Shown here piece by piece: positions 27,756 through 55,066 of a stretch of DNA of 64,000 nt. The stretch covers positions 1 to 64,000 of the forward strand of contig NZ_QWEK01000021.1 in the NCBI RefSeq assembly GCF_009935845.1. The letters run 5' to 3'. The notes beneath the pieces were generated by a model. That model had not been told where the DNA came from, did no database searches, and saw only the letters and a list, made by a program, of their open reading frames with translations. Within the stretch, counting starts at the first letter, position 1. Each line of letters starts with the position of its first letter. The position numbers and the translations under genes are program-made. The DNA is from Pseudoflavonifractor sp. 524-17 (GTDB lineage Bacteria > Bacillota > Clostridia > Oscillospirales > Oscillospiraceae).

Positions 27756-29453
27756 TTACTCCCCGCTGTGGGTGGCGTTATACCAGCGGTTCACCGCAGA
27801 GAGGATTCCCTTCAGGGGGGCCAGGTTGATGTTGTGGCTCATTCCCACGCCGAACCAATCCCGGCGGTTCTGGTCCTGAAGGTGGATATAGGCCACCGCC
27901 TGGGAGTCAGAGCCCCGCTTAATGGCGTGCTCTTTGTAGTCCACAAAGGTGAAGCGGTCCATTTTCTGGCCGTGGATGGCGTTGAAGAAGGCGTCGATGG
28001 GGCCGTTGCCGGACCCCTGGACCTGGAAGACGGTATCCTTATGCCGCAGGGTGCCGGCGAAGGTGACGTGGGAGTGCCCCCCCTCGTCGGTGAACTCGGC
28101 AAAGGAGTGGCGCACCAGCTGATAGGGGGCGGTGGCGTCGATGTAGTTGTCGTGAAAAAGCTCATAGACCCGCTGCGGCTGAAGCTCGGTGCCCACCCGG
28201 TCGGTCTCCACCTGGACGATGTGGCCGAATTCCGGGTGCATGGACTTGGGCAGCTCGAAGCCGAAGGAGTGCTGCATGACGAAGGCGGCGCCCCCCTTGC
28301 CGGACTGGCTGTTGATGCGGATAATGGGCTCGTACTGGCGGCCCACGTCGGCAGGGTCAATGGGGAGGTAGGGGATCTCCCACTTGTCCGAGCCGCTGTC
28401 AGCCATGTACTGGGTCCCCTTGTTGATGGCGTCCTGGTGGGAGCCGGAGAAGGCGGTGAACACCAGAGAGCCGGCATAGGGCTGCCGCTCTCCCACCTTC
28501 ATCTTGGTACACCGCTCGTACATCTCCCGGATGTCGTTGATGTGGGAGAGGTCCAGCTGGGGGTCCACCCCTTGGGTGTGCATGTTCAGGGCCAAAGTGA
28601 CGATGTCTACATTGCCGGTGCGCTCGCCGTTGCCGAAAAGGGTGGCCTCAATCCGCTCCGCCCCGGCCAGCAGGCCCATTTCCGCAGTGGCCACGCCGCA
28701 GCCCCGGTCATTGTGGGGGTGCAGGGAGATGATGGCGCAGTCCCGGCCAGGCAGCTTTTCAATAAAATACTCGATCTCGTCGGCGAAGTAGTTGGGCATA
28801 CAGTTTTCCACCGTGGTGGGGAGATTGAGGATGACTTTTTTCTCCGGCGTGGCGTGGAGGTTGTCCAGCACCGCCTGGCAGATCTCCACCGCGTAGTCCA
28901 TTTCCGTGCCCATAAAGGATTCGGGGGAGTACTCAAAGCGCAGGTCCATGCCGCCAGCGATGACGGGCTGGGACAGCTCATAGATGAGCTTGGCCGCGTC
29001 CACGGCGATCTTGGTGATGCCCTCCCGATCCATGTGGAAGACCACCTTGCGCTGGAGGGCGGAGGTGGAGTTGTAGAAGTGAAGGATAACGTGCTTGGCC
29101 CCCTGAATGGCCTCAAAGGTGCGCTGAATCAGGTGGGGCCGGGCCTGGACCAGCACCTGGATGGTCACGTCATCTGGGATATGCCCCCCGTCGATGAGCT
29201 CACGGCAGATCTCAAACTCGGTCTCCGAGGCGGAAGGGAAGCCAATCTCAATTTCCTTCACCCCGATATCCACCAGAGTGTGGAAATACTCCAGCTTTTC
29301 CCGCAGATTCATGGGGTCCACCAGCGCCTGGTTGCCGTCGCGCAGGTCCACGGAGCACCAGATGGGAGCGGCCTTGATCTCCTGGTCCGGCCACCGCCGG
29401 CTGGGGCGCTTGAGGGGGACAAAGGGAATGTACTTTTCAAAGGATTTGCTCAT
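27756..29453 (-). CDS. leuA: 2-isopropylmalate synthase (LeuA type 2)
   Basis: The 565-residue enzyme joins acetyl-CoA and 2-oxoisovalerate in the first step of leucine synthesis. Marks are the metal/substrate start SVDLRDGNQALVDPM, SLHPHNDRGCGVATAEMG with the metal-binding histidines, and TLFGNGERTGNVDIVTLALNM. The length and the KYIPFVPLKRPSRRWP start fit the alpha-IPMS type 2 form. The C-terminal third is the leucine-sensing LeuA dimer domain. CAGGAGGAACTGATTT precedes the ATG at 29453. A T-box leader controls it. No other leu genes are in this window. Confidence 0.95.
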   Translation of the reverse strand: MSKSFEKYIPFVPLKRPSRRWPDQEIKAAPIWCSVDLRDGNQALVDPMNLREKLEYFHTLVDIGVKEIEIGFPSASETEFEICRELIDGGHIPDDVTIQVLVQARPHLIQRTFEAIQGAKHVILHFYNSTSALQRKVVFHMDREGITKIAVDAAKLIYELSQPVIAGGMDLRFEYSPESFMGTEMDYAVEICQAVLDNLHATPEKKVILNLPTTVENCMPNYFADEIEYFIEKLPGRDCAIISLHPHNDRGCGVATAEMGLLAGAERIEATLFGNGERTGNVDIVTLALNMHTQGVDPQLDLSHINDIREMYERCTKMKVGERQPYAGSLVFTAFSGSHQDAINKGTQYMADSGSDKWEIPYLPIDPADVGRQYEPIIRINSQSGKGGAAFVMQHSFGFELPKSMHPEFGHIVQVETDRVGTELQPQRVYELFHDNYIDATAPYQLVRHSFAEFTDEGGHSHVTFAGTLRHKDTVFQVQGSGNGPIDAFFNAIHGQKMDRFTFVDYKEHAIKRGSDSQAVAYIHLQDQNRRDWFGVGMSHNINLAPLKGILSAVNRWYNATHSGE

Positions 29454-29486: not shown

Positions 29487-29755
29487 AAAAAGCCCCTGAC
29501 CTATCCAAAATTAGGTCAGGGGCGTAATTACAAATACGCGGTACCACCCTGGTTCCGTCCGCCGTCGCCGGGGGACGCTCACGGCCTCCAACAAGGCCCT
29601 GGCCAATAACGAGGCCATCCGGCCTGCCCTAAATTCCCGTTCAGGCAGGCGGCTCCGGGACCAGTATCCACAGGGGACCCACGCGCCGGTTCGCACCAAA
29701 CCACCGGTTCTCTGAGCGGAGCAGCCCTGTCTTCTTCCCATCATCGCTGTTATTG
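29487..29755 (-). ncRNA. T-box riboswitch (leucine)
   Basis: On the minus strand the T-box sequence AGGGTGGTACCGCGT lies at 29550-29536, followed by a 12-pair terminator stem (29523-29512 with 29503-29492) and five T. A stem I-like region begins near 29755. A CTG triplet at 29664-29662, within GATACTGGT, is a candidate leucine specifier codon. Uncharged tRNA-Leu would open leuA. Confidence 0.92.
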
Positions 29756-30102: not shown

Positions 30103-31554
30103 ATGGAATGGAAGGAAGATGTTATCCGCGCACTGGCGCCCAACGCCTCTGCGGTGGAGAACGGCCGCAAGCTGTCCCGAAAGGGGAGCTTTTTCAACCA
30201 CTGCCAGAGTGAGCAGGGGGACTGCTTCTGGGCCGACTGCGCCGGCAGCGGCAAGAACCCCTATCAGGTGTCCATCGACCTGACAGACCCCCAGTCGCCG
30301 GTGTGCCGGTGCTCCTGCCCCAGCCGGCAGTTCCCCTGCAAGCACGCGCTGGGCCTGATGTTCGAGCTGGAGGCAGGGAAAGAGTTCCCCGTAGGGGAGC
30401 TGCCCCAGTCCCTGGCGGACAAGCGGGCCAAGCAGGCGGCCAAGGCCGCGAAAAAGGCCGCCGGAGCCGATCCCGCCGCCCCCGCCAAGCCCAAGAAGGT
30501 CAACGCCGCCGCCCGCACCAAGAAGCTGAAAAAGCAGCTGGAGGGCCTGGATATGGCAGAGCGGATGGTAAACGACCTTCTGACCGGCGGGCTGGGCACG
30601 CTGGCGGGCGTGTCGGCAAAGTCCTATGAAAAGCTGGCGAAGGATCTGGGCAGCTTTTACCTCAACGGGCCCCAGCTGTCCTTCTCCCGCATCGCCCTGG
30701 CAGTGAGCGCCATTCAGAAGGAGCCGGACAAGGCGGAGCAGTGCTATGAACAGGCGCTGCGGGAGCTCATTGCCCTCCACTCCACCATTCAAAAGGGCCG
30801 GGTCTTTTTGAGCGAAAAGCTGGAGCAGGGTCAGTTCTCCCAGGAGGACAATGTGCTCTTCGAGGCCCTAGGCGGCGTGTGGAAGCTGGAGGAGCTGGGC
30901 GCCGCCGGCGCCTGTAAGGAGGCGGCCAGCGTGGTGCAGCTGTCCTTTGACGTGTCCTACGATCCCGCCCGGCGGGAGTACATCGACCGGGGCTTCTGGG
31001 CCGACCTGGACAGCGGCGAGGTCTATCAGACGTTGAATTACCGGCCTGTCAAGGCCCTGAAATACGTGAAGGAGGAGGACAGTAATTTCTCCGTCCTCAC
31101 CGTTCCCCAGCTCTACCGCTATCCCGGGGAGCTCAACCGCCGGGCGAGGTGGGAGAGCGCCATGCCCCACGACCTCACCCCCGGCCATCTGGCCCAGCTG
31201 CGGGAGAAAGCCCAGCCCGGGGTGGCCGCGGCGGTGAAGGCGGTGAAGAACCAGATTAAGAACACCCTGTCCCCCAAATACGCCGGCGTGCTGATCCCCT
31301 ACGCCCGCATCGGCGCGGTGGACGGGGAAGCCGTGCTGGAGGACCCCGCTGGCCAGCGCATTGTCCTGATGGACCAGCCCGAGGCGGGAGAGGACCACCG
31401 GTGCGTACACCGCCTGGCCCTCCTGCCCGACGGCGGAATGCTGGAGGACGGCGTGGTCTTCGGCGTGATGTTTTACGACGCGGTCCAACGGACCCTGTGC
31501 CTGCACCCCTACAGTCTTATCACCGGAACTCAGATCGTCCGGCTTCAGTATTGA
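30103..31554 (+). CDS. SWIM zinc-finger protein
   Basis: The 483-residue protein has a SWIM motif CxCx(n)CxH at about residues 67-81 (VCRCSCPSRQFPCKH), a zinc fold used for nucleic-acid or protein binding. An alanine/lysine-rich linker (about 105-150) follows, then a long region without recognised domains, helical in the middle and beta-rich toward the end. CAAGGAGGG precedes the ATG at 30103; the longer in-frame ORF upstream lies in the repeat element. It is the first gene of the five-gene set and ends 26 bases before the next. Confidence 0.85.
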   Translation: MEWKEDVIRALAPNASAVENGRKLSRKGSFFNHCQSEQGDCFWADCAGSGKNPYQVSIDLTDPQSPVCRCSCPSRQFPCKHALGLMFELEAGKEFPVGELPQSLADKRAKQAAKAAKKAAGADPAAPAKPKKVNAAARTKKLKKQLEGLDMAERMVNDLLTGGLGTLAGVSAKSYEKLAKDLGSFYLNGPQLSFSRIALAVSAIQKEPDKAEQCYEQALRELIALHSTIQKGRVFLSEKLEQGQFSQEDNVLFEALGGVWKLEELGAAGACKEAASVVQLSFDVSYDPARREYIDRGFWADLDSGEVYQTLNYRPVKALKYVKEEDSNFSVLTVPQLYRYPGELNRRARWESAMPHDLTPGHLAQLREKAQPGVAAAVKAVKNQIKNTLSPKYAGVLIPYARIGAVDGEAVLEDPAGQRIVLMDQPEAGEDHRCVHRLALLPDGGMLEDGVVFGVMFYDAVQRTLCLHPYSLITGTQIVRLQY

Positions 31555-31580
31555 CCACGGAAACGGAGGAAGACGCCATT

Positions 31581-33539
31581 ATGGAACTGCAAAGCCTGTA
31601 TGAGCTAAAGGAACGGCTGGAGCGCGCCGCCGTGGCGGGCGCCGGCCTGCTGGACGAGGATTTCCGCCTCAAGCGGGCGGCGGAGGGGCTGGAGCCCCTG
31701 GCCAAGGCCAGTCCGGTCTTTGGTAAGATCAAAGCCGGGGCGGAAAGCCTGCTGGCCGCCCCCAGAGAGGAGCGTCCGGGGAAGTTGCTGGCCCTGCTGG
31801 CCCTGGTGGACGCGGTGGCCTACACCCAGGGGACGGTTGGGAAGGCCGGCGATCTGCTCCCCCTGGACTGTGGGGGAAGCGGGGTGTACCGCCCCCTGAG
31901 CCGGGGGGCCCTCTCCCCCTTGCTCACCGCCCTCACCACCACCGGCAGCGGGCGGATGGAGATCGTCCAGTCCGCCTGGGAGAATCACCCGGAGTATTTT
32001 GAGGACTTCCGGGTGCTCCCCGCCCTGGTGGCCGGGCTGGGAGACAGCTATGGGGAGCTGGCCGCGCTGAACGGGGAAATCCTCAAAAAGCTGGGCGGCG
32101 CCCCCCTGCCGCTGTTAAAGCGGGACTTTGATCCCGCCGGGAAAAAGGAGATGGCCCGCCGGGTGGAGGTCATCGCCGCCGTCCAGGGCCCGCAGGCCAC
32201 CCCCTGGCTGCGGGAGATTCTCCCCCAGGCCAAGAAGGAGGTCCGCGGGGCGGTGATCACCGCCCTGGGGGACGACCAGGACAACGCCGCCCTGCTGCTG
32301 GAGCTGGCCAAGACGGAGCGGGGGGCCAACCGGGACGCCGCCCTCCAGGCCCTGGCCCTTCAGGAGGGGGCGGAGGTCCGCTCCTTCTGGGAGGAGGAGC
32401 TGGCCAAGAACAGCCAGTCGGTGAAGTTCCTTCAGCCCGCCCGCTCGGACTGGTCTGTCGACCTGATCACCGCCGGACTGCGCCAGCGGCTGGAGACGCT
32501 CCTCACCAGGGAGGGGCCCGCCAGTCTGGCGGAGAGCCAGGACATTACCGCCTGGTGCTGGGCCATCGGCCAAAAAGACTCCCCCGTGATGCTGGACTTT
32601 TGGCGGTGGGTGGATGAGCATATCGAGGCCATCGACCGCATTGAGGACGAAAAGGGCCGCTCCCCCTTCCTGGGGGTGAGGCTGACGGACCACCTGCGGG
32701 ACATTTTGCTCAAAACCGGACCGGGCCCCCTGCGGGACTTCTGCCAAACCCTCTGGGAGAACCGTCCCGCTATGACCCGCTATCTGATCCTTTCCTTCCT
32801 GGCCGCCCTGCTCTCCCGCCCGGCGGCGGAGGTGTACGACCGCTTCTCCCCCTATCTGCTCACCAAAAAGCCCCTTTTGGACGCCGGCCCCAAGCGGGCC
32901 ATCCACGACGTCCTCCTGCGGGCCTTTACCTGGGTGACCTGGCGCAAGGACCAAAAGAGCTACTGGGTGAAGGAGGACGACCGCCCCTTCTACAACTGGG
33001 ACAACGTCTGGGATTACATCACCGGCCAGCCCACCGCCGAGCCCCTGGACCCCCGGTGGATCCCCCGGCTGATTCAGGCTGTCTGGAAGGAGATCCCCGG
33101 CCAGTATATGCCCTTCGGCAGCGGGGACCCCGTGGGCCGCTTCGACCTGGCACTGGCGAGCCTGATTGACCACGAGAATGAGGAAATGCGCTCTGCCGCC
33201 GGGACCTATCTCAGAGGGGCCATGCTGTCCTCCGGAAACGCCTATGTCTACGGCCGCTTTTTGGTGGACCTGGGGGAGAGCCCCAGAGGTGTGCTGGGAA
33301 GATCCCTGCGCAAGAAATCCGGGCGGCACTATCTCTACCGGATGTGGGAGCTGCTCTTTGCGGCCGCCGCCCGCTTCCCCGCCCAGGAGGTGGCGGAGCT
33401 GATGGAGGAGATCGACCCCGCCCTGGCTTTCCGTAAGAACGACCTGCCCCTGGCGGAAAAGGTCATCCCCTGGACCATCCAACAGCTCCGGGAGGGCAAG
33501 CCCTTCCCGGTGTGGGCCGAGTGGTGGAGTATGCGGTAG
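31581..33539 (+). CDS. HEAT-repeat-like protein (DUF5691-like?)
   Basis: The 652-residue protein is strongly helical. The stretch around residues 170-310 (REILPQAKKEVRGAVITALGDD, ALLLELAKTERGANRDAALQALA) shows HEAT-like helical pairs, which usually form a scaffold. No catalytic motif, signal peptide or membrane segment is seen. By its position between a SWIM protein and a MoxR ATPase it probably corresponds to the DUF5691-type partner seen in similar clusters of other phyla; this is recalled context, not a search result. ATG 31581 follows CGGAGGAAGACGCCATT; a longer frame open from 31401 overlaps the previous gene. Confidence 0.75.
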   Translation: MELQSLYELKERLERAAVAGAGLLDEDFRLKRAAEGLEPLAKASPVFGKIKAGAESLLAAPREERPGKLLALLALVDAVAYTQGTVGKAGDLLPLDCGGSGVYRPLSRGALSPLLTALTTTGSGRMEIVQSAWENHPEYFEDFRVLPALVAGLGDSYGELAALNGEILKKLGGAPLPLLKRDFDPAGKKEMARRVEVIAAVQGPQATPWLREILPQAKKEVRGAVITALGDDQDNAALLLELAKTERGANRDAALQALALQEGAEVRSFWEEELAKNSQSVKFLQPARSDWSVDLITAGLRQRLETLLTREGPASLAESQDITAWCWAIGQKDSPVMLDFWRWVDEHIEAIDRIEDEKGRSPFLGVRLTDHLRDILLKTGPGPLRDFCQTLWENRPAMTRYLILSFLAALLSRPAAEVYDRFSPYLLTKKPLLDAGPKRAIHDVLLRAFTWVTWRKDQKSYWVKEDDRPFYNWDNVWDYITGQPTAEPLDPRWIPRLIQAVWKEIPGQYMPFGSGDPVGRFDLALASLIDHENEEMRSAAGTYLRGAMLSSGNAYVYGRFLVDLGESPRGVLGRSLRKKSGRHYLYRMWELLFAAAARFPAQEVAELMEEIDPALAFRKNDLPLAEKVIPWTIQQLREGKPFPVWAEWWSMR

Positions 33540-33638
33540 ATCGCGGTAAATCAGCCTGTGGAAAAAGCCCCGCAGCGTTCGCGCCCGCAGGGGCGGACAA
33601 CATGCAATCTCTGGCAGTCTGAAATGGAGGAACTTAAT

Positions 33639-34730
33639 ATGTCTGATAAAAACGTACAGCGCCTCCCGGCGGAGGAGCTCTATCAAAAGGAACTGGACGC
33701 GCTGATCGCCGCGGAGACGGATCCCGTCCCCACCGGTTGGAAGATGTCCCCCCGCTCGGTGCTCACCTACGTCACCGGAAATACCACCGTCAAGGGGGTT
33801 CCCATCACCCCCAAGTACATGGGCAGCCGCCGGCTGGTGGAGATTGCCATTGCCACATTGGTCACGGACCGGGCGCTGCTGCTCATCGGGGAGCCAGGCA
33901 CCGCCAAGAGCTGGCTGTCCGAGCACCTGTCCGCCGCCGTCAACGCCGACTCCACCAAGGTGGTCCAGGGCACCGCCGGCACCACCGAGGAGCAGATCCG
34001 CTACTCCTGGAACTATGCCATGCTCATCGCCAAGGGCCCCTGTCCCGAGGCTATGGTGAAAAGCCCCATCTACCGGGCCATGGAGAGCGGCACCGTGGCC
34101 CGGGTGGAGGAGATCTCACGCTGCGCCAGCGAGGTACAGGACGCCCTGATCTCCATCCTGTCGGAAAAGCGCATCTCCGTGCCGGAGCTGGGCATTGAGC
34201 TCCCCGCCCGGAAGGGCTTTTCCGTCATCGCAACCGCCAACAGCCGGGACAAGGGGGTCAACGAGATGTCCGCCGCCCTCAAGCGCCGGTTCAATATTGT
34301 CGTACTCCCCACCCCGCCGGACATTCAGACCGAGCTGGACATTGTAAAAACCCGGGTGGAGCAGCTCTCCGCCGGGCTGGACCTCAACGCCCGCCAGCCA
34401 GACGCCGGCACCGTGGAGCAGGTGGTCACCATCTTCCGGGAGCTGCGCAGCGGCGCCACTTTGGACGGCAAGCAGAAGCTGAAGACCACCACCGGCGTGC
34501 TGTCCACCGCCGAGGCCATCTCCCTGCTGGCCAACTCCATGGCCCTGGCCGGCAGCTTCGGAGACGGCGCGGTCTCCCCCCAGGACCTGGCCGCCGGCCT
34601 CCAGGGCGCGGTGGTCAAGGAGGAGGACAAAGACAAGATTGTCTGGAAGGAGTACCTGGAAAACGTGATGAAGAAGCGGGGCAGCGCCTGGCTCCCCCTC
34701 TACCGGGCCTGCCGGGAGCTGAATTCCTGA
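33639..34730 (+). CDS. MoxR-family AAA+ ATPase
   Basis: The 363-residue protein has Walker A GEPGTAKSW (about 84-92), a Walker B region VARVEEISRC (about 153-162) in which the usual aspartate is glutamate, the sensor SVIATANSRD, and the arginine-finger-like LKRRFNIVVLPTPPD. MoxR ATPases act as chaperones that remodel VWA-protein complexes or metal enzymes. ATG 33639 follows ATGGAGGAACTTAAT. The stop overlaps the next start by one base, and a VWA protein closes the operon. Confidence 0.92.
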   Translation: MSDKNVQRLPAEELYQKELDALIAAETDPVPTGWKMSPRSVLTYVTGNTTVKGVPITPKYMGSRRLVEIAIATLVTDRALLLIGEPGTAKSWLSEHLSAAVNADSTKVVQGTAGTTEEQIRYSWNYAMLIAKGPCPEAMVKSPIYRAMESGTVARVEEISRCASEVQDALISILSEKRISVPELGIELPARKGFSVIATANSRDKGVNEMSAALKRRFNIVVLPTPPDIQTELDIVKTRVEQLSAGLDLNARQPDAGTVEQVVTIFRELRSGATLDGKQKLKTTTGVLSTAEAISLLANSMALAGSFGDGAVSPQDLAAGLQGAVVKEEDKDKIVWKEYLENVMKKRGSAWLPLYRACRELNS

Positions 34731-37027
34731 TGGGCGGGCCGGTGCTGTTCGGGGTGCGCCACCTGTCCCCGGCGGCGGCGTACCACCTGCGGCGGGCGCT
34801 GGATGAGGCCAATCCGGCCCTGGTGCTGGTGGAGGGCCCCAGCGATCTCTCCGAGGAGCTGCACTGGTTCTGCCACCCACAGACCAAGCTCCCCGCCGCC
34901 ATTCTGGCCTACACGCAGGACAGTCCTGTGCGCACCATTCTCTACCCCTTCGCGGAGTACTCCCCAGAATATCAGGCCATCCTCTGGGCCCACGAGCACG
35001 GGGTGCCCTGCCGGTTTATGGATCTGCCCTCCTCCGTCTTCCTGGCCTTGGGGCCGGACTGGGCCGCGCCCAAAGAGGACGGCGAAGACAAAGACGCCCC
35101 GCCGGAGGAGGCACCCAGCCCGGATATTCCCACCACCGAGTGGGTCTACCGCCGGCTGGAGACCGTCACCGGGGAGGACCACGACGCCTTCTGGGAGCGG
35201 CGGTTTGAGCAGCTGGACACCCCCGGGGCCTACCGGGACGCAGCCAACACCTTCGGTCGGGAGCTGCGCCGCCTGGCCCAGGATTCCCCCCGCCGCACCG
35301 CGGAAAACCAGGTGCGGGAGGCGTACATGAAACGTACCATTCAAAAGGCGGTGGAGACCGGCGTTCCGGCGGAGCGGATCTTCTGCGTCTGCGGCGCGTT
35401 CCACGTGGAGGGATTGGAGCAGATTGCCCCCATGACCGACGAGGAGCAGAACGCCCTTCCCCGGGCGGTGAGCCACGCCACGCTGATGCCCTACTCCTAC
35501 TACCGCCTGTCCACCCGGGCGGGCTACGGCGCGGGAAACCAGGCCCCAGCCTATTTTGAGCTGCTGTGGGAGGCCCTGCACCGGAGCGGGCCGGGGGAGG
35601 CGGCCTATCTCTACCTCACCGCCCTGGCCGCGGCCCACCGGGGAGCGGGCAACCTCACCTCCTCTGCGGAGGTGATTGAGGCGGTGCGGCTGGCCCACAC
35701 CCTGGCCGGCCTGCGGGGGAGCAAGTACCCCTGCCGGGCGGATCTGCGGGACGCGGCGGTGGCCTGTATGGGCCACGGGCACTTTTCCGAGCTGGCCGCC
35801 GCCGCCGCGCAGGTGGAGATCGGCACGAAGATCGGCGCCCTCCCTGACGGGGTGAGCCGCACCTCCATCCAGGCTGACTTCTACCGCCAGCTGAAGGATT
35901 TAAAGCTGGAGCCCTACCGCACGGCCCAGGCCAAACCCTTGGATCTGGACCTGAGAGAAAAGCTCACCGTCAAATCGGAGGCCGCCGCCTTTCTGGATCT
36001 CAACCGCTCCCTCTTTCTCCACCGGCTGCGGGTGCTGGGGGTGCGCTTCGCCGTGCCGGTCCAGCGGCGGCAGGAGAAGGCCAGCTGGGGAGAGTACTGG
36101 ACCCTTCAGTGGACCCCGGAGGCGGAGATCGAGATCGTGGAGTCCGCCCTGCTGGGAGACACAGTGGAGGGGGCCGCTTCCTTCGCCCTGCGGGAGCGGG
36201 CGGAGGCCAGCACCTCCATGGAACAGGCCGCTTCCCTCTTTGGGGACGCCTTTTTGTGCGGTATGCCCGCGGCCGCCGGCTATATTCTCTCCATCCTCCA
36301 GCGCCTGAGCGTGGATGCGGCGGCAGTCAGCGACATTGCAGGCACCGCCGCGCAGCTGTCTTTGGTGATCCGGTACGGGGACCTCCGCCGGTTTGACGCC
36401 GCTCCCCTCATCCCCCTGCTCAGCCAGCTCTATCTCCGGGCCTGCCTTACGTTAGAGGACGCCTGTATCTGCGACAACAGCGCCGCTGACGGCGTCATGA
36501 AGACCATGGACAGCCTCAACGCCGTCCAGCTCAACCACGACTTTCTGGACGAGACCTTGTGGCTGTCGCTGCTCAGCCGCATCTCTGACCGGGATGATCT
36601 GAACACCTGCTGCTCCGGCTTTGCCATGGCCACGCTGCTGGAGCGGGGCAAGGCGGAGGACGCCCTGCTGGAGCGGGAGGTGGCCCGGCGGCTCTCCCCC
36701 GGCATCCCGGCGGACCTGGGGTGCGGGTGGTTTGAGGGACTGGCCCGGAAAAACCGTCCCGCCCTCATCACCCGCCTGTCCCTGTGGCGGGAGCTCAGCG
36801 GCTATCTGGACCAGCTGGACGACGATGCCTTCAAGCGGGCGCTGGTCTTTCTCCGCCGGGCCTTCTGCGAGTTCACCGCCGGCGAGAAAGCGGACATCGC
36901 GGAGAATCTGGGGGAGATCTGGGGGCTTAACGCCCAGCAGACCGCCGACGCCCTCCTCCGCAAGACCACGCAGGAGGAGCAGGCGCTGCTGGCGGATCTG
37001 GACGAATTCGACTTTGACGGCATTTAG
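34730..37027 (+). CDS. DUF5682-type protein with two GxxH motifs
   Basis: The 765-residue protein opens with PVLFGVRHLSPAAAYHLRRAL and VLVEGPSD, the form of the DUF5682 group. Two GxxH motifs are visible: GVRH at 8-11 and GAFH at 222-225 (FCVCGAFHVEGLEQI), with E35 in the strand after the first helix. This spacing and context recall the TIKI/TraB/ChaN/EreA hydrolase-like superfamily, so a metal-dependent hydrolase is my inference. The C-terminal 400 residues are helical and unassigned. It overlaps the MoxR stop and lies 13 bases before the VWA gene. Confidence 0.8.
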   Translation: MGGPVLFGVRHLSPAAAYHLRRALDEANPALVLVEGPSDLSEELHWFCHPQTKLPAAILAYTQDSPVRTILYPFAEYSPEYQAILWAHEHGVPCRFMDLPSSVFLALGPDWAAPKEDGEDKDAPPEEAPSPDIPTTEWVYRRLETVTGEDHDAFWERRFEQLDTPGAYRDAANTFGRELRRLAQDSPRRTAENQVREAYMKRTIQKAVETGVPAERIFCVCGAFHVEGLEQIAPMTDEEQNALPRAVSHATLMPYSYYRLSTRAGYGAGNQAPAYFELLWEALHRSGPGEAAYLYLTALAAAHRGAGNLTSSAEVIEAVRLAHTLAGLRGSKYPCRADLRDAAVACMGHGHFSELAAAAAQVEIGTKIGALPDGVSRTSIQADFYRQLKDLKLEPYRTAQAKPLDLDLREKLTVKSEAAAFLDLNRSLFLHRLRVLGVRFAVPVQRRQEKASWGEYWTLQWTPEAEIEIVESALLGDTVEGAASFALRERAEASTSMEQAASLFGDAFLCGMPAAAGYILSILQRLSVDAAAVSDIAGTAAQLSLVIRYGDLRRFDAAPLIPLLSQLYLRACLTLEDACICDNSAADGVMKTMDSLNAVQLNHDFLDETLWLSLLSRISDRDDLNTCCSGFAMATLLERGKAEDALLEREVARRLSPGIPADLGCGWFEGLARKNRPALITRLSLWRELSGYLDQLDDDAFKRALVFLRRAFCEFTAGEKADIAENLGEIWGLNAQQTADALLRKTTQEEQALLADLDEFDFDGI

Positions 37028-37040
37028 GGGGGAGGACATC

Positions 37041-38213
37041 ATGACAGAGGAAGCACGCATCAAGCGCTGGCGGCTCATCCTGGGGCAGGAGAGCGAGGAC
37101 CGGTTCTCCCAGATGGGCGGCGGTCTCGCCCTCTCCCCGGACGAGCTGGCTATGGACAGCGCCCTTGCCGCCATCTACGGCGGGGACGGCGACCTGGGGA
37201 GCGGCGGCCGGGGCGCGGGCCGCGGCCCCTCCTCCCCCAAGCTGGCCAAGTGGCTGGGGGATCTGCGCCGCCTCTTCGACCAGGAGATTGTAGCGGTGGT
37301 GCAGAACGACGCGGTGGAGCGCCGGGGGCTGAAGCAGCTGCTGCTGGAGCCGGAGCTGCTGGAAAATCTGGAGCCGGATTTAAATCTGGCCTCCACCCTA
37401 CTGGCCCTCAAGGACCAGATTCCCAAGCACTCCAAAGAGTCCGCCCGGGCCTTTATCGCCAAAATCGTGGCCGACATCAACAAGCTGCTGGACAGCGACA
37501 TCCGCCGGGCGGTGACCGCCGCCCTCAACAAGCGGGCCCACTCCCCGCTGCCCAGCGCCGCGGCCATTGACTACAAGTGGACCATCTCCCGCAATCTGAA
37601 GCACTACAGCCCCCAGCTCAAGGCCATCGTGCCGGAGCGGGTGTACTTTTACGACCGCTCCAGCCGCACCAACCGGTGGCACGTGATTCTGGATATCGAC
37701 CAGAGCGGCTCCATGGGGGAGTCCATCATTTACTCCTCCATCATGGCCTGTATTTTGGCCAGCATGAGCGCGGTGCGCACCAACGTGGTGGCCTTTGACA
37801 CCCAGATTATGGATCTCACCCAGCTGTGCCAGGACCCGGTGGATCTCCTCTTCGGCTTTCAGATGGGGGGCGGCACCGACATCGCCAAATCCATCGCCTA
37901 CTGCCAGGAGTTCGTAGAGACCCCGTCCAAAACCCTCTTCTTCCTCATCTCCGACCTGGAGGAGGGGGGCAACCGGGCGGGCCTGCTCCGGCGGCTGGAG
38001 GAGCTGAAGGACGCCGGCGTCACCGTCATCACTTTGCTGGCCATCGCCGACGGCGGACGGCCCTGCTACGATGAAACCACTGCCCAGCGCATCGCCGCCA
38101 TGGGCATCCCCTGCTTCGCCTGCACACCGGAAAAGCTGCCCCTTTTGCTGGAACGGGCGTTGAAAGGCCAGGAGTTGATGTCTCTGGCCAAGGAGTTCCA
38201 GCGGAAAAAATAG
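37041..38213 (+). CDS. VWA-domain protein
   Basis: The 390-residue protein has a helical N-terminal half with a glycine-rich loop (GGDGDLGSGGRGAGRG) and a C-terminal von Willebrand A domain. The metal-ion site is visible as DIDQSGSMGES (DxSxS near 219-223) and GGGTDI (near 276-281), with ISDLEEGG further on. VWA proteins paired with MoxR ATPases form metal-dependent contacts with client proteins. GGGGGGAGGACATC precedes the ATG at 37041. It is the last gene of the set; a terminator follows at 38286. Confidence 0.9.
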   Translation: MTEEARIKRWRLILGQESEDRFSQMGGGLALSPDELAMDSALAAIYGGDGDLGSGGRGAGRGPSSPKLAKWLGDLRRLFDQEIVAVVQNDAVERRGLKQLLLEPELLENLEPDLNLASTLLALKDQIPKHSKESARAFIAKIVADINKLLDSDIRRAVTAALNKRAHSPLPSAAAIDYKWTISRNLKHYSPQLKAIVPERVYFYDRSSRTNRWHVILDIDQSGSMGESIIYSSIMACILASMSAVRTNVVAFDTQIMDLTQLCQDPVDLLFGFQMGGGTDIAKSIAYCQEFVETPSKTLFFLISDLEEGGNRAGLLRRLEELKDAGVTVITLLAIADGGRPCYDETTAQRIAAMGIPCFACTPEKLPLLLERALKGQELMSLAKEFQRKK

Positions 38214-38285
38214 CGGAGGGTTCCAAAGGGGGGGGGCGGCTGAAACTGGTTGATTGTAATGTACATCTGAACGAATAGGAAAAGA

Positions 38286-38340
38286 AACAGCCGTCTGCGG
38301 CTGTTGGATATCCTCCAACAGCTATAGACGGCTGTTTTCA
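38286..38340 (+). terminator. terminator of the SWIM-MoxR-VWA operon
   Basis: AACAGCCGTCT (38286-38296) pairs with AGACGGCTGTT (38326-38336), enclosing an inner hairpin GCTGTTGGA/TCCAACAGC, and is followed by TTTTC. It ends the operon 72 bases after the VWA stop. Confidence 0.75.
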
Positions 38341-39105: not shown

Positions 39106-39135
39106 TTGACAATACCCCAATGATGATGATAAAAT
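39106..39135 (+). promoter_or_regulatory. promoter of the Stealth gene
   Basis: TTGACA (39106-39111) and TAAAAT (39130-39135) are 18 bases apart in an AT-rich stretch, about 57 bases before the start. Confidence 0.65.
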
Positions 39136-39191
39136 AATTCATAAAATTTTGCTGATGCAGTTAGACATCATGGGATTAGGGTGTGGGAAAG

Positions 39192-40196
39192 ATGGACTGT
39201 CAGATTGATTTTGTAGTAACATGGGTGAACGGACAGGATCCAAAGTGGCAGAGACAAAAAGCGAACTATTCTCCCGGCACTGATATGGACGACAACATAT
39301 GCCGTTATCGGGAGTGGGAGCTATTCTACTACTGGTTTCGGGGCGTGGAGCGGTTTGCTCCCTGGGTGCGCACAGTCCATCTTGTCACTGAGGGCCATCT
39401 CCCTGATTGGCTGGACACCTCCTGTGAGAAGCTTCGTATTGTAACCCATGAGGATATCATCCCCGAGCAGTATCTGCCTATCTTCAATTCCAATGCCATT
39501 GAAATGTGGCTTCATAAGATTGAGGGTCTTTCCGAACATTTTGTCTATTTTAATGACGATATGTTCCTGATGCGTCCAACCAGGCCGGAGGATTTTTTCT
39601 ATCATGGGAAGCCCTGCGATATGCTTGCGTTCCAGCCAGTTATTGCAAATCCCAAAGCCCCTGTCATGTCCCATCTGTATTTGAACAATATTCTTGTTTT
39701 ATGTAAGTATTTTAATAAGAGAGAGAATGTGCGGCGGCATCTTCGAAACTATTTCCATATTGGAATGCCGCCGTTATATTTCTTCTACAACCTGATTGAG
39801 CTGGCGTTCCCCCACTACACCGGACTGTATACAGTCCATGGCCCCTCGCCGTTCTGCAAGGCGACATTTGAGGAACTCTGGCGCCTGGAGCGGCCTGTTT
39901 TGGAGCGGTGCTCCGCTAACCGGTTTCGCAGTGAGACAGATGTTACACAGTATCTCTTTCGGGAATGGCAAAAACTTGCAGGAAATTTCTGCCCGCGCAA
40001 TATCAAAAAGCTCTGTGGCTATTATGAAATTGGAAGGGACAGCACCGCGCTGCTTCAGGCAATCAGGCATCCAAAGAAAAAAATCCTGTGTCTGAATGAT
40101 GTTTTGAGTGACAGCACGGATGTGGAACGTCTGAAAATAGAGCTCTATCATGGGTTTGAGTCAATTCTTTCGGAGAAGTCGATTTACGAGAAATAA
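39192..40196 (+). CDS. Stealth-family sugar-phosphate transferase
   Basis: The 334-residue protein carries the Stealth conserved regions: CR1 IDFVVTWVNGQDPKW at the N-terminus, CR2 YREWELFYYWFRGVERFAPWVRTVHLVTEGHLPDWL, FNSNAIEMWLHKIEGLSEHFVYFNDDMFLMRP, CR3 around FHIGMPPLYF, and CR4 near YLFREWQ. These enzymes transfer hexose-1-phosphate onto glycan chains in capsule or exopolysaccharide synthesis. The gene is AT-richer than the housekeeping genes and sits alone beside dead insertion sequences, so transfer is likely. ATG 39192 is preferred; GTG 39183 is possible. Confidence 0.9.
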   Translation: MDCQIDFVVTWVNGQDPKWQRQKANYSPGTDMDDNICRYREWELFYYWFRGVERFAPWVRTVHLVTEGHLPDWLDTSCEKLRIVTHEDIIPEQYLPIFNSNAIEMWLHKIEGLSEHFVYFNDDMFLMRPTRPEDFFYHGKPCDMLAFQPVIANPKAPVMSHLYLNNILVLCKYFNKRENVRRHLRNYFHIGMPPLYFFYNLIELAFPHYTGLYTVHGPSPFCKATFEELWRLERPVLERCSANRFRSETDVTQYLFREWQKLAGNFCPRNIKKLCGYYEIGRDSTALLQAIRHPKKKILCLNDVLSDSTDVERLKIELYHGFESILSEKSIYEK

Positions 40197-54830: not shown

Positions 54831-54855
54831 GTCTCACACAACTGAATCGTAAAAT

Positions 54856-54966
54856 GTCTTCAGGGCAGGGTGAAATTCCCGATCGGCGGTAAAGTCCGCG
54901 CGTGCGAAAGCACTGATTTGGTGCAACTCCAAAACCGACAGTATAGTCTGGATTAGAAGAAGGTGT
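54856..54966 (+). ncRNA. FMN riboswitch (RFN element)
   Basis: The conserved blocks are present: TCAGGGCAGGGTGAAATTCC, CGATCGGCGGTAAAGTCCGCG, GATTTGGTGCAACTCC and AACCGACAGTATAGTCTGGA. FMN binding should promote the terminator at 55067-55108 and switch off ribU. Confidence 0.96.
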
Positions 54967-55066
54967 GTTGAAACAGTCGGGAATCTCCCTGGTTTTTTGC
55001 ACTTTTTTCTGTCAATTCTCCAAGCCGCTCTGTTGACATGTTCAATACACCGATACCGAAATCAGC

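What the first reader, a model, noticed from the sequence alone, without database searches (positions are those of the whole stretch)
30103..38213. Five-gene SWIM / HEAT / MoxR / GxxH / VWA operon
Seen: five genes in one direction with gaps of 26, 99, -1 and 13 bases and a terminator after the last. They encode a SWIM zinc-finger protein, a HEAT-like scaffold, a MoxR AAA+ ATPase, a DUF5682-type protein with two GxxH motifs and a VWA protein with an intact metal site. Known: MoxR and VWA proteins form chaperone-like pairs, and related multi-gene MoxR-VWA sets have been proposed as conflict or stress systems. Inference: the SWIM protein recognises a nucleic acid or protein, MoxR/VWA remodels a complex, and the GxxH protein is an effector enzyme. 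I know of no experimental description of this exact set.
Basis: partly seen in the sequence, partly recalled or inferred. Interest (0 to 1): 0.85.

Follow-up and report, generated by a model that had tools for sequence, protein, structure and literature searches.

The report
Five-gene MoxR-VWA operon with TraB-like hydrolase
A five-gene operon, related to an uncharacterised gene cluster present in nearly every E. coli, encodes a predicted ATP-driven protein-remodelling machine built around a probable peptide-cutting enzyme of the TraB/TIKI type, plus two probable targeting proteins; its job in the cell has not been tested.

Summary
The set is real and conserved. Of 62 related loci with room around the MoxR gene, 58 hold all five genes in one place; three of the other four genomes hold the missing members elsewhere. 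It is not unknown: MoxR, DUF5682 and VWA are homologues of E. coli YehL, YehM and YehP, followed there by a SWIM protein (YehQ). yehM-like DNA is in 5284 of 5426 complete E. coli genomes.

New here: the N-terminal domain of DUF5682 belongs to the TraB/TIKI superfamily (two GxxH motifs, a conserved Glu, a profile match, a fold match to a solved TraB protein). That predicts a hydrolase, most likely a peptidase. The SWIM protein has two OB-like barrels (moderate support). The HEAT protein evolves fastest; elsewhere DUF5691 stands in its place or a DUF4132 gene accompanies the cluster.

Best reading: a YehL-type MoxR/VWA machine that gates a TraB-type hydrolase, with the SWIM/OB and HEAT proteins as targeting adaptors. 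A phage-defence role is not supported, nor excluded. No functional study was found in the searched library.

The parts
30103..31554 (+). SWIM protein, 483 aa: SWIM module ~1-116, helical bundle ~131-246, two OB-like barrels ~263-357 and ~358-477
   Evidence: the four Cys/His zinc ligands in 66 of 66 rows
30262..30363 (+). SWIM zinc finger (residues 54-87; C70, C72, C79, H81)
   Evidence: PF04434, 30.8 bits
30889..31533 (+). two OB-like barrels (residues 263-477)
   Evidence: AlphaFold2 mean pLDDT 90.5; 1jmc RPA70 Z 6.0, rmsd 4.7, 171 aligned; 6oe9 p204 HIN Z 6.3, rmsd 5.5, 182 aligned: moderate
31581..33539 (+). HEAT-repeat protein, 652 aa, fast-evolving; no detectable sequence match to DUF5691 or to YehI (DUF4132)
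   Evidence: PF13646; helical repeat proteins in PDB by profile
33639..34730 (+). MoxR AAA+ ATPase, YehL type, 363 aa
   Evidence: PF07728; 39% identical to E. coli YehL
33888..33911 (+). Walker A, residues 84-91 (GEPGTAKS)
   Evidence: G84 and P86-S91 identical in 89 of 89 rows; position 85 not counted
34730..37027 (+). DUF5682 protein, 765 aa: TraB/TIKI-like N-domain and a largely helical remainder
   Evidence: PF18934, 508 bits; model pLDDT 88.3, pTM 0.78
34730..35494 (+). TraB/TIKI-superfamily domain (residues ~1-255)
34751..34762 (+). first GxxH motif (G8-H11); H11 in 82 of 82 rows, G8 in 81 of 82
35393..35404 (+). second GxxH motif (G222-H225); both in 82 of 82 rows
37041..38213 (+). VWA (CoxE-like) protein, 390 aa
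   Evidence: PF05762; 33% identical to E. coli YehP
37698..37712 (+). metal site DxSxS (D220-S224), completed by T279 and D305
   Evidence: 72 of 72 rows
38284..38338 (+). terminator-like hairpin after the operon
   Evidence: listed by the pattern scan on the - strand only

Best explanation
A YehL-type MoxR/VWA machine that controls a hydrolase. Proposed working: MoxR forms an ATPase ring; the VWA protein sits on it and grips a client peptide through its metal site; the ring's ATP cycle pulls on VWA and so opens the client or the hydrolase. The DUF5682 protein carries a TraB/TIKI active site (two GxxH histidines, E35, R196/E197) and cuts or processes the client, most likely at a peptide bond; its C-terminal half is largely helical and may be the docking face. 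The SWIM protein (zinc finger, helical bundle, two OB-like barrels) and the HEAT protein choose the client. Shown here by computation: the gene set, its co-retention, the domain assignments, conservation of the catalytic positions, the fusions. Inferred from studied MoxR/VWA pairs (NorQ/NorD): ring, VWA docking, ATP-driven remodelling. Inferred only: that DUF5682 is an active peptidase, that it is gated by MoxR/VWA, and that SWIM and HEAT are adaptors. The client is unknown.
For: Linkage: of 80 kept loci, 62 had >=4.5 kb before and >=4 kb after MoxR; 56 of 62 have SWIM-HEAT-MoxR-DUF5682-VWA, 2 of 62 HEAT-SWIM-MoxR-DUF5682-VWA (any profile hit at E<=1e-3 counts, and the HEAT hit is a short ORF in L048 and L098). 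Co-retention when unlinked: of the other 4, both Rhodopirellula genomes keep SWIM and HEAT at other places, and the L023 genome keeps SWIM-HEAT on one contig and VWA on another. Full-length SWIM of this type (>600 bits) in 3 of 398 phylum genomes, all three with DUF5682. Enzyme: hhalign of the DUF5682 N-domain with 13 bacterial TraB proteins 96.4% (8 far members alone 94.8, 43 near ones 94.5; 30 column shuffles at most 0.4, reversed 0.2; four unrelated families at most 0.5); top VIA-align row 7w5z_E, Z 10.3, rmsd 4.6, 188 aligned, over residues 1-238, named 'TraB family protein' in PDB. R10, H11, E35, D98, R196, E197, H225 in 82 of 82 rows. Fusions: DUF5682-VWA in one ORF in Streptomyces and Paenibacillus 32O-W; SWIM-DUF5691 in Hymenobacter HDW8 (annotation; SWIM motif seen by eye). 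NorQ/NorD model: passages of PMC9976466, abstract of PMC13036017.
Against: No activity has been measured. TraB/TIKI-fold proteins include non-peptidases and inactive members. Foldseek alone gave DUF5682 no match at E<=0.001, and DUF5682 scored only 11.5-11.7% with the GumN-type half of PF01963, 1.3-1.6 with ChaN (2 sequences) and 0.1 with Ere (1 sequence). The OB-like assignment rests on Z of about 6-7. The studied MoxR/VWA pairs that I read of mature or activate a client enzyme rather than gate a protease. Of 8 phylum genomes with DUF5682 over the cut-off, 5 have no full-length SWIM of this type: four with a divergent DUF5682 and one with its locus on a short contig. Paenibacillus 32O-W has the trio without SWIM or HEAT, so these adaptors are not strictly required. 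The 80 loci are the best matches to this MoxR, so the linkage count describes close relatives.
Confidence: 0.45

Rival explanations
1. Enzyme-maturation chaperone: as NorQ/NorD, CoxD/CoxE and CbbQ/CbbO, the MoxR/VWA pair remodels a separate client enzyme (metal or cofactor insertion), and the TraB-like protein acts as binding or processing subunit rather than effector.
For: VWA is CoxE-like; studied MoxR/VWA pairs serve metalloenzyme maturation or enzyme activation (PMC9976466 passages; PMC12657314 passages). In both Rhodopirellula genomes the unlinked SWIM gene follows genes for MoaA and MoaE of molybdenum-cofactor synthesis. The E. coli cluster lies beside a gene called molR in the deletion list of PMC10652928. 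Present in almost all E. coli, as a housekeeping system would be.
Against: No client enzyme gene stands out among the neighbour clusters of 80 loci, judged by eye; MoaA/MoaE found at no other locus searched. Invariant TraB catalytic positions (82 of 82) suggest catalysis rather than scaffolding.
Confidence: 0.27
2. Conflict or anti-phage system: SWIM/OB senses foreign nucleic acid, MoxR/VWA sets a threshold, the TraB-like hydrolase is the effector.
For: Patchy in its own phylum (8 of 398 genomes over the cut-off) and among relatives (10 of 99; 4 of 10 in the genus, own genome included); members from other phyla nest among Bacillota in a quick tree; HEAT is the least conserved (mean identity 0.26 against 0.74 for MoxR) and in tandem copies in 5 of 80 loci; 36 records of the plasmid collection hold DUF5682, though 9 of them are over 2 Mb and may be chromosomes. 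MoxR-vWA conflict systems exist (PMC7159879, passages and section 8).
Against: In 5284 of 5426 E. coli genomes, nearly always on the chromosome, one place per genome at the median; none of the 25 largest neighbour clusters looks like a defence gene by eye (neighbours were not scanned against PADLOC); gene content hardly varies; best PADLOC hit E 4e-4 over the SWIM region only. Solenoid proteins can drift fast without an arms race.
Confidence: 0.2
3. Five genes that merely travel together, without a joint function.
For: Occasional splitting of the set and occasional insertion of unrelated genes.
Against: 58 of 62 linked, three of the other four genomes keep the missing members unlinked, two kinds of fusion.
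Confidence: 0.03

Closest known systems
E. coli yehL-yehM-yehP-yehQ cluster (K-12 MG1655)
   Same: MoxR (39% identity), DUF5682 (26% over 542 aligned columns) and VWA (33%) in the same order; a SWIM protein adjacent
   Different: SWIM gene last, not first, and no blastp (E<=1) or phmmer hit of the window's SWIM protein to YehQ; a DUF4132 protein (YehI) upstream, no HEAT homologue found among the five E. coli proteins compared
SWIM-DUF5691-AAA-DUF5682-VWA sets in Rhizobium, Deinococcus, Hymenobacter and Methylosinus plasmid records (a VWA gene is listed in three of the five records, L015, L016, L145)
   Same: same order; the SWIM profiles align at 99.7% probability over 219 columns
   Different: DUF5691 in place of the HEAT protein, with no profile similarity between the two (3 DUF5691 sequences); an extra small gene between AAA and DUF5682 in L014, L015 and L145
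TraB/PrgY/GumN family (PF01963), TIKI superfamily
   Same: N-domain fold, two GxxH motifs, conserved Glu and Arg-acid pair
   Different: a further ~500 residues, largely helical, without profile similarity to TraB (1.8%); encoded beside a MoxR gene
NorQ/NorD and CoxD/CoxE MoxR-VWA chaperone pairs
   Same: AAA_5 ATPase with a CoxE-like VWA partner with intact metal site
   Different: three further subunits, one a predicted hydrolase; no evident client enzyme gene alongside
MoxR-vWA ternary conflict systems (Kaur et al. 2020, PMC7159879)
   Same: MoxR-vWA pair plus further subunits
   Different: none of their third components among the Pfam hits (whether Pfam holds a VMAP model was not checked); no effector domain on the VWA protein in Pfam; the bpMoxR hit (25.8 bits) is below the cut-off of 27

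Membership tests
MoxR AAA+ ATPase, YehL subfamily | AAA_5 domain with Walker A and Walker B | tested here: met
   128.3 bits; G84, P86-S91, E157, E158, N201, R216, R217 identical in 89 of 89 rows
MoxR AAA+ ATPase, YehL subfamily | close relative of YehL | tested here: met
   39% identity over 363 columns, E 3e-83; not compared with RavA or the other MoxR subfamilies
MoxR AAA+ ATPase, YehL subfamily | helix-2 insert | not tested
   MoxR was not modelled
CoxE-like VWA protein | VWA domain with complete metal site DxSxS-T-D | tested here: met
   154.4 bits; five positions 72 of 72
TraB/TIKI superfamily | two GxxH motifs and a conserved Glu in the second strand | tested here: met
TraB/TIKI superfamily | profile similarity to a known member | tested here: met
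   hhalign 93.5-96.4% with TraB, controls at most 0.5%; low with the GumN-type set (11.5-11.7), ChaN (1.3-1.6; 2 sequences) and Ere (0.1; 1 sequence)
TraB/TIKI superfamily | shared fold | tested here: met
   7w5z_E Z 10.3, rmsd 4.6, 188 aligned, a TraB family protein; next row Z 8.6
TraB/TIKI superfamily | hydrolase activity | not testable with these tools
   needs an assay
SWIM zinc-finger protein | CxC...CxH | tested here: met
   PF04434; 66 of 66 rows; ZSWIM8 9rwz_N Z 10.9, rmsd 3.9, 109 aligned over residues 1-116
tandem OB-fold nucleic-acid-binding protein | two OB barrels as in RPA70 or HIN domains | tested here: inconclusive
   1jmc Z 6.0, rmsd 4.7, 171 aligned; 6oe9 Z 6.3, rmsd 5.5, 182 aligned; Foldseek best E 4.7e-4
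DUF5691 protein (HEAT slot) | PF18944 or profile match | tested here: not met
   no PF18944 hit listed at E<=1; hhalign 0.5% (only 3 DUF5691 sequences)
MoxR-vWA ternary conflict system (Kaur et al.) | VMAP, iSTAND, FtsH or beta-propeller third component | tested here: inconclusive
   none among the Pfam hits of the five proteins, but whether Pfam holds a VMAP model was not checked; no neighbour family in more than 10 of 80 loci
known anti-phage system | match to PADLOC models | tested here: inconclusive
   only weak partial hits; a library holds only described systems

The most novel reading that the evidence does not exclude
A nucleic-acid-triggered, ATP-gated protease: the SWIM/tandem-OB protein binds single-stranded or damaged nucleic acid (or the proteins on it), the HEAT protein selects the client, and the MoxR ring acting through VWA releases a TraB/TIKI peptidase onto it. 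It would be a new class of regulated proteolysis, unlike Clp, Lon or FtsH: the ring would not thread substrate into a chamber but would work a separate enzyme. A relative would be encoded in nearly every E. coli and unrecognised.
Probability: 0.18. Interest if true: 0.85.

Novelty: new variant of a known kind. Interest (0 to 1): 0.6.

Why it matters
YehL is one of the named MoxR subfamilies and, with RavA, one of two MoxR proteins encoded in E. coli K-12 (PMC3893208, passages); no function for it was found in the searched library. Placing its partner DUF5682/YehM in the TraB/TIKI superfamily gives a concrete, testable activity and exact residues to mutate, in a model organism where nearly every strain carries the genes. 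It also breaks the problem into a core (MoxR, DUF5682, VWA) and parts that vary between lineages (HEAT, DUF5691 or DUF4132, with SWIM).

Tried and rejected
Foldseek with the whole DUF5682 model gave no match at E<=0.001 and was dominated by helical solenoids; in the VIA-align second look only the top row of 50 lies within the N-domain. The C-terminal half was not folded alone, so nothing is claimed about its fold beyond 'largely helical'. Sequence searches of PDB with DUF5682, SWIM and VWA profiles gave nothing of value; MoxR matched midasin and NorQ.

HEAT = DUF5691 or DUF4132: not supported by profile comparison (the DUF5691 side held 3 sequences and the DUF4132 side 1, so weak tests).

A recurrent sixth gene: the largest neighbour cluster spans 10 of 80 loci (ABC transporters at scattered positions; naming by eye; ORFs of 90 aa or more that do not overlap the core). 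Genes inside the set are one-offs: an RtcB and an ankyrin protein in L057, a PEBP-family protein in L054, a PIN-domain protein in L051.

Molybdenum link: MoaA and MoaE genes precede SWIM in two Rhodopirellula genomes, but phmmer found them at no other locus searched nor in the window; kept only under a rival.

Phage link: the single phage-collection hit, MT835988, is an 'UNVERIFIED' faecal scaffold without annotation; not used.

Tree: FastTree on 69 concatenated rows. Three rows have long branches, and the branch that places Treponema is not starred, so nesting of Treponema and Desulfovibrio is suggestive of transfer, not proof. Rows dropped: loci without near-full MoxR, DUF5682 and VWA, and L087 (fused).

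TraB controls: of the PF01963 loci, L109 (wrong frame picked) and L126 (stop inside) were left out; of the weaker PF05139 and PF04187 loci, L129, L132 and L133.

Literature: DUF5682 or DUF5691 in 0 papers; 'SWIM zinc finger' with MoxR and operon in 0; two or more of yehL, yehP, yehQ, molR as whole words in 1 paper, the DGF-298 genome list; broader searches. The library holds open-licence PMC papers only; Snider and Houry 2006 and other subscription papers were not seen. PMC8939145 was read in passages and not used.
Full report
WHAT IS THERE. Pfam names are SWIM, HEAT_2, AAA_5, DUF5682 and VWA_CoxE, each over its curated cut-off. The strand after the last stop folds into a 55-base hairpin at 38284-38338 (-39.8 kcal/mol; 200 shuffles mean -15.1); the pattern scan lists a terminator-like site there on the - strand only. 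The same scan shows no sigma-70-like promoter just before the SWIM gene on the + strand; the perfect promoter-like site nearby (29790-29761) is on the other strand, ahead of a T-box (29515-29753) and a leuA-like gene (27756-29453). The genome holds one DUF5682 and one CoxE-like VWA gene.

IT IS A KNOWN, UNSTUDIED CLUSTER. E. coli K-12 has yehL (MoxR), yehM (DUF5682), yehP (VWA) and yehQ (SWIM) in a row, with the DUF4132 gene yehI and the small yehK upstream. BLASTP identities are 39% (YehL), 26% over the best 542 columns (YehM) and 33% (YehP); the window's SWIM protein gave no hit to YehQ with blastp or phmmer, and the HEAT protein no phmmer hit to YehI (blastp: one 55-column stretch at E 0.01). 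yehM-like DNA is in 5284 of 5426 complete E. coli genomes (5166 with at least 80% of the gene), yehQ-like DNA in 5300. The genome-reduced strain DGF-298 lacks yehI to yehQ (passage of PMC10652928), and a ~7 kb stretch with yehM and yehL is absent from two Shigella sonnei lineages (passage of PMC12795559), so the cluster can be lost. In a sample of the window's own phylum the family is rare: 11 of 398 genomes at E<=0.001, 8 over the cut-off; among 99 near relatives 10, and in the genus 4 of 10, the window's genome included.

THE SET HOLDS TOGETHER. They are mostly Bacillota with a few Bacteroidota, Spirochaetota, Planctomycetota, Verrucomicrobiota, Desulfovibrio and Gastranaerophilales records. 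Of 80, 62 had at least 4.5 kb before and 4 kb after MoxR; 56 of 62 show SWIM-HEAT-MoxR-DUF5682-VWA, 2 HEAT-SWIM-MoxR-DUF5682-VWA, 3 only MoxR-DUF5682-VWA, and 1 only MoxR-DUF5682 (any profile hit at E<=1e-3 counts; in L048 and L098 the HEAT hit is a short ORF). Those four were followed into the whole genome. Both Rhodopirellula genomes carry full-length SWIM and a HEAT protein (337-341 bits), each at another place; in the L023 genome SWIM and HEAT lie together on another contig and VWA on a third. Only Paenibacillus 32O-W has no SWIM match and no HEAT match above 20 bits. So 61 of 62 genomes hold a match to all five. Two genomes outside the 62 (short contigs) agree: the L092 genome has MoxR, SWIM, HEAT and VWA on four contigs (its DUF5682 was not searched for), and the L095 genome has MoxR-DUF5682, SWIM-HEAT and VWA on three. 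In the phylum sample, full-length SWIM of this type (over 600 bits) occurs in 3 of 398 genomes, all three with DUF5682; 16 others gave only partial or weak SWIM matches. The reverse does not hold: of the 8 genomes with DUF5682 over the cut-off, 5 have no full-length SWIM of this type; four of these carry a divergent DUF5682 and one has its locus on a short contig. Two kinds of fusion suggest contacts: DUF5682 with VWA in Streptomyces (L017) and Paenibacillus 32O-W, and SWIM with DUF5691 in Hymenobacter HDW8 (SWIM motif seen by eye). The same region is split into more ORFs in H. radiodurans, so that last fusion rests on one record.

VARIANT SLOTS. Where the window has the HEAT protein, plasmid records of Rhizobium, Deinococcus, Methylosinus and Hymenobacter have DUF5691. 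E. coli, Iodobacter, Sinorhizobium, Agrobacterium vitis and Streptomyces records have DUF4132 genes in or beside the cluster, not always at the same position. No profile similarity joins HEAT to DUF5691 or to YehI (small comparison sets). Among 53 loci with five near-full genes, mean pairwise identity is 0.74 MoxR, 0.61 VWA, 0.52 DUF5682, 0.44 SWIM and 0.26 HEAT; HEAT is in tandem copies in 5 of 80 loci, leaving out L028, whose second hit is a 31-bit fragment. This fits a client-selecting part, but solenoids can also drift fast without such a role.

THE ENZYME. The AlphaFold2 model of DUF5682 (mean pLDDT 88.3, pTM 0.78) has an alpha/beta N-domain and a largely helical rest. Foldseek found nothing at E<=0.001. 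The VIA-align second look puts 7w5z_E first (Z 10.3, rmsd 4.6, 188 aligned, model residues 1-238), above solenoid rows at Z 8.6 and lower. A profile of bacterial TraB proteins finds that same chain in PDB, named 'TraB family protein' (E 1.5e-8); a TraB-family subunit of the ciliate complex IV is mentioned in a passage of PMC10060162. Independently, hhalign of the DUF5682 N-domain with 13 TraB proteins gives 96.4% (far members alone 94.8, near ones alone 94.5; whole protein 93.5), against at most 0.4 in 30 column shuffles, 0.2 reversed and at most 0.5 for four unrelated families. TraB against GumN, a pair inside PF01963, scores 95.9. The direct scores of DUF5682 with the GumN, ChaN and Ere sets were low: 11.5-11.7, 1.3-1.6 and 0.1, the last two sets holding 2 and 1 sequences. 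The alignment pairs GVRH with GTAH, E35 with the TraB Glu, R196-E197 with Arg-Asp, and GAFH with GAAH. R10, H11, E35, D98, R196, E197 and H225 are the same in 82 of 82 rows, E. coli, Streptomyces, Rhizobium and Deinococcus included (near-full rows only, duplicates dropped). In a studied TIKI-fold endopeptidase each of 2 His and 2 Glu is needed for cutting, and Ere enzymes share a His-Glu pair (passages of PMC6254334). This predicts a hydrolase; that it is a peptidase is an inference.

THE ADAPTORS. The SWIM protein model (pLDDT 90.5, pTM 0.72) shows a SWIM module like that of ZSWIM8 (Z 10.9, rmsd 3.9, 109 aligned), a helical bundle, and two OB-like barrels that align with RPA70 and HIN domains at Z of about 6 over 160-180 residues. 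That Z level can mean only a common arrangement, so nucleic-acid binding is a hypothesis. The HEAT protein matches designed and a few natural helical repeat proteins in PDB by profile.

MECHANISM. In NorQ/NorD the VWA domain plugs the MoxR ring, its metal site is essential for the client enzyme's activity but not for ring binding, and ATP drives remodelling (passages of PMC9976466; abstract of PMC13036017). The catalytic and metal positions tested are intact here. The simplest extension is that the same engine works on, or through, a TraB-type hydrolase, with SWIM and HEAT choosing the client. I give this 0.45. A maturation chaperone (0.27) and a conflict system (0.20) remain open. The conflict reading is weakened by E. 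coli-wide presence, near-constant gene content and the lack of evident defence neighbours (by eye); it is helped by the patchy spread in Bacillota and by members of other phyla nesting among them.

NOVELTY. In the searched library no paper names DUF5682 or DUF5691, and two or more of the yeh names appear only in the DGF-298 list by whole-word search; subscription papers were not seen. The YehL subfamily of MoxR is named in print (passages of PMC3893208, and PMC11432383).

Noticed in passing
window 29515-29753 (-), 27756-29453 (-): T-box leader (99 bits) with a perfect sigma-70-like promoter site at 29790-29761 ahead of a 2-isopropylmalate synthase gene.
   Followed up: partly
window 54852-54968 (+): FMN riboswitch, 104.2 bits.
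   Followed up: no
window 39183-40196 (+): Stealth family protein (CR1 and CR2 over cut-off, CR3 just below it), with a promoter-like site at 39106-39135 upstream.
   Followed up: no
L170:3094-6415 and L171:3653-7001 (Rhodopirellula): The unlinked SWIM gene follows moaA and moaE genes of molybdenum-cofactor synthesis in both genomes (Pfam on L170, phmmer for L171); no such neighbour at any other locus searched.
   Followed up: partly
L057:3499-6839: RtcB, ankyrin and a third gene inserted between DUF5682 and VWA in one Clostridia MAG.
   Followed up: partly
L051:3737-4486: A PIN-domain gene behind a small gene (toxin-antitoxin-like, by eye) between DUF5682 and VWA.
   Followed up: partly
L064:8972-9808, L065:8887-9819: A conserved gene of about 280-310 aa stands directly before MoxR in both Rhodopirellula genomes; no Pfam match for the L064 copy, the only one scanned.
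   Followed up: partly
L019 (MT835988): A record labelled bacteriophage, 'UNVERIFIED' and unannotated, carries MoxR-DUF5682-VWA; it may be a bacterial scaffold.
   Followed up: no
L007-L010 (unnamed Bacillota genomes): A second, divergent DUF5682 type (22-23% identical to the window's in the three of four aligned) with its own MoxR and VWA in the same phylum.
   Followed up: partly
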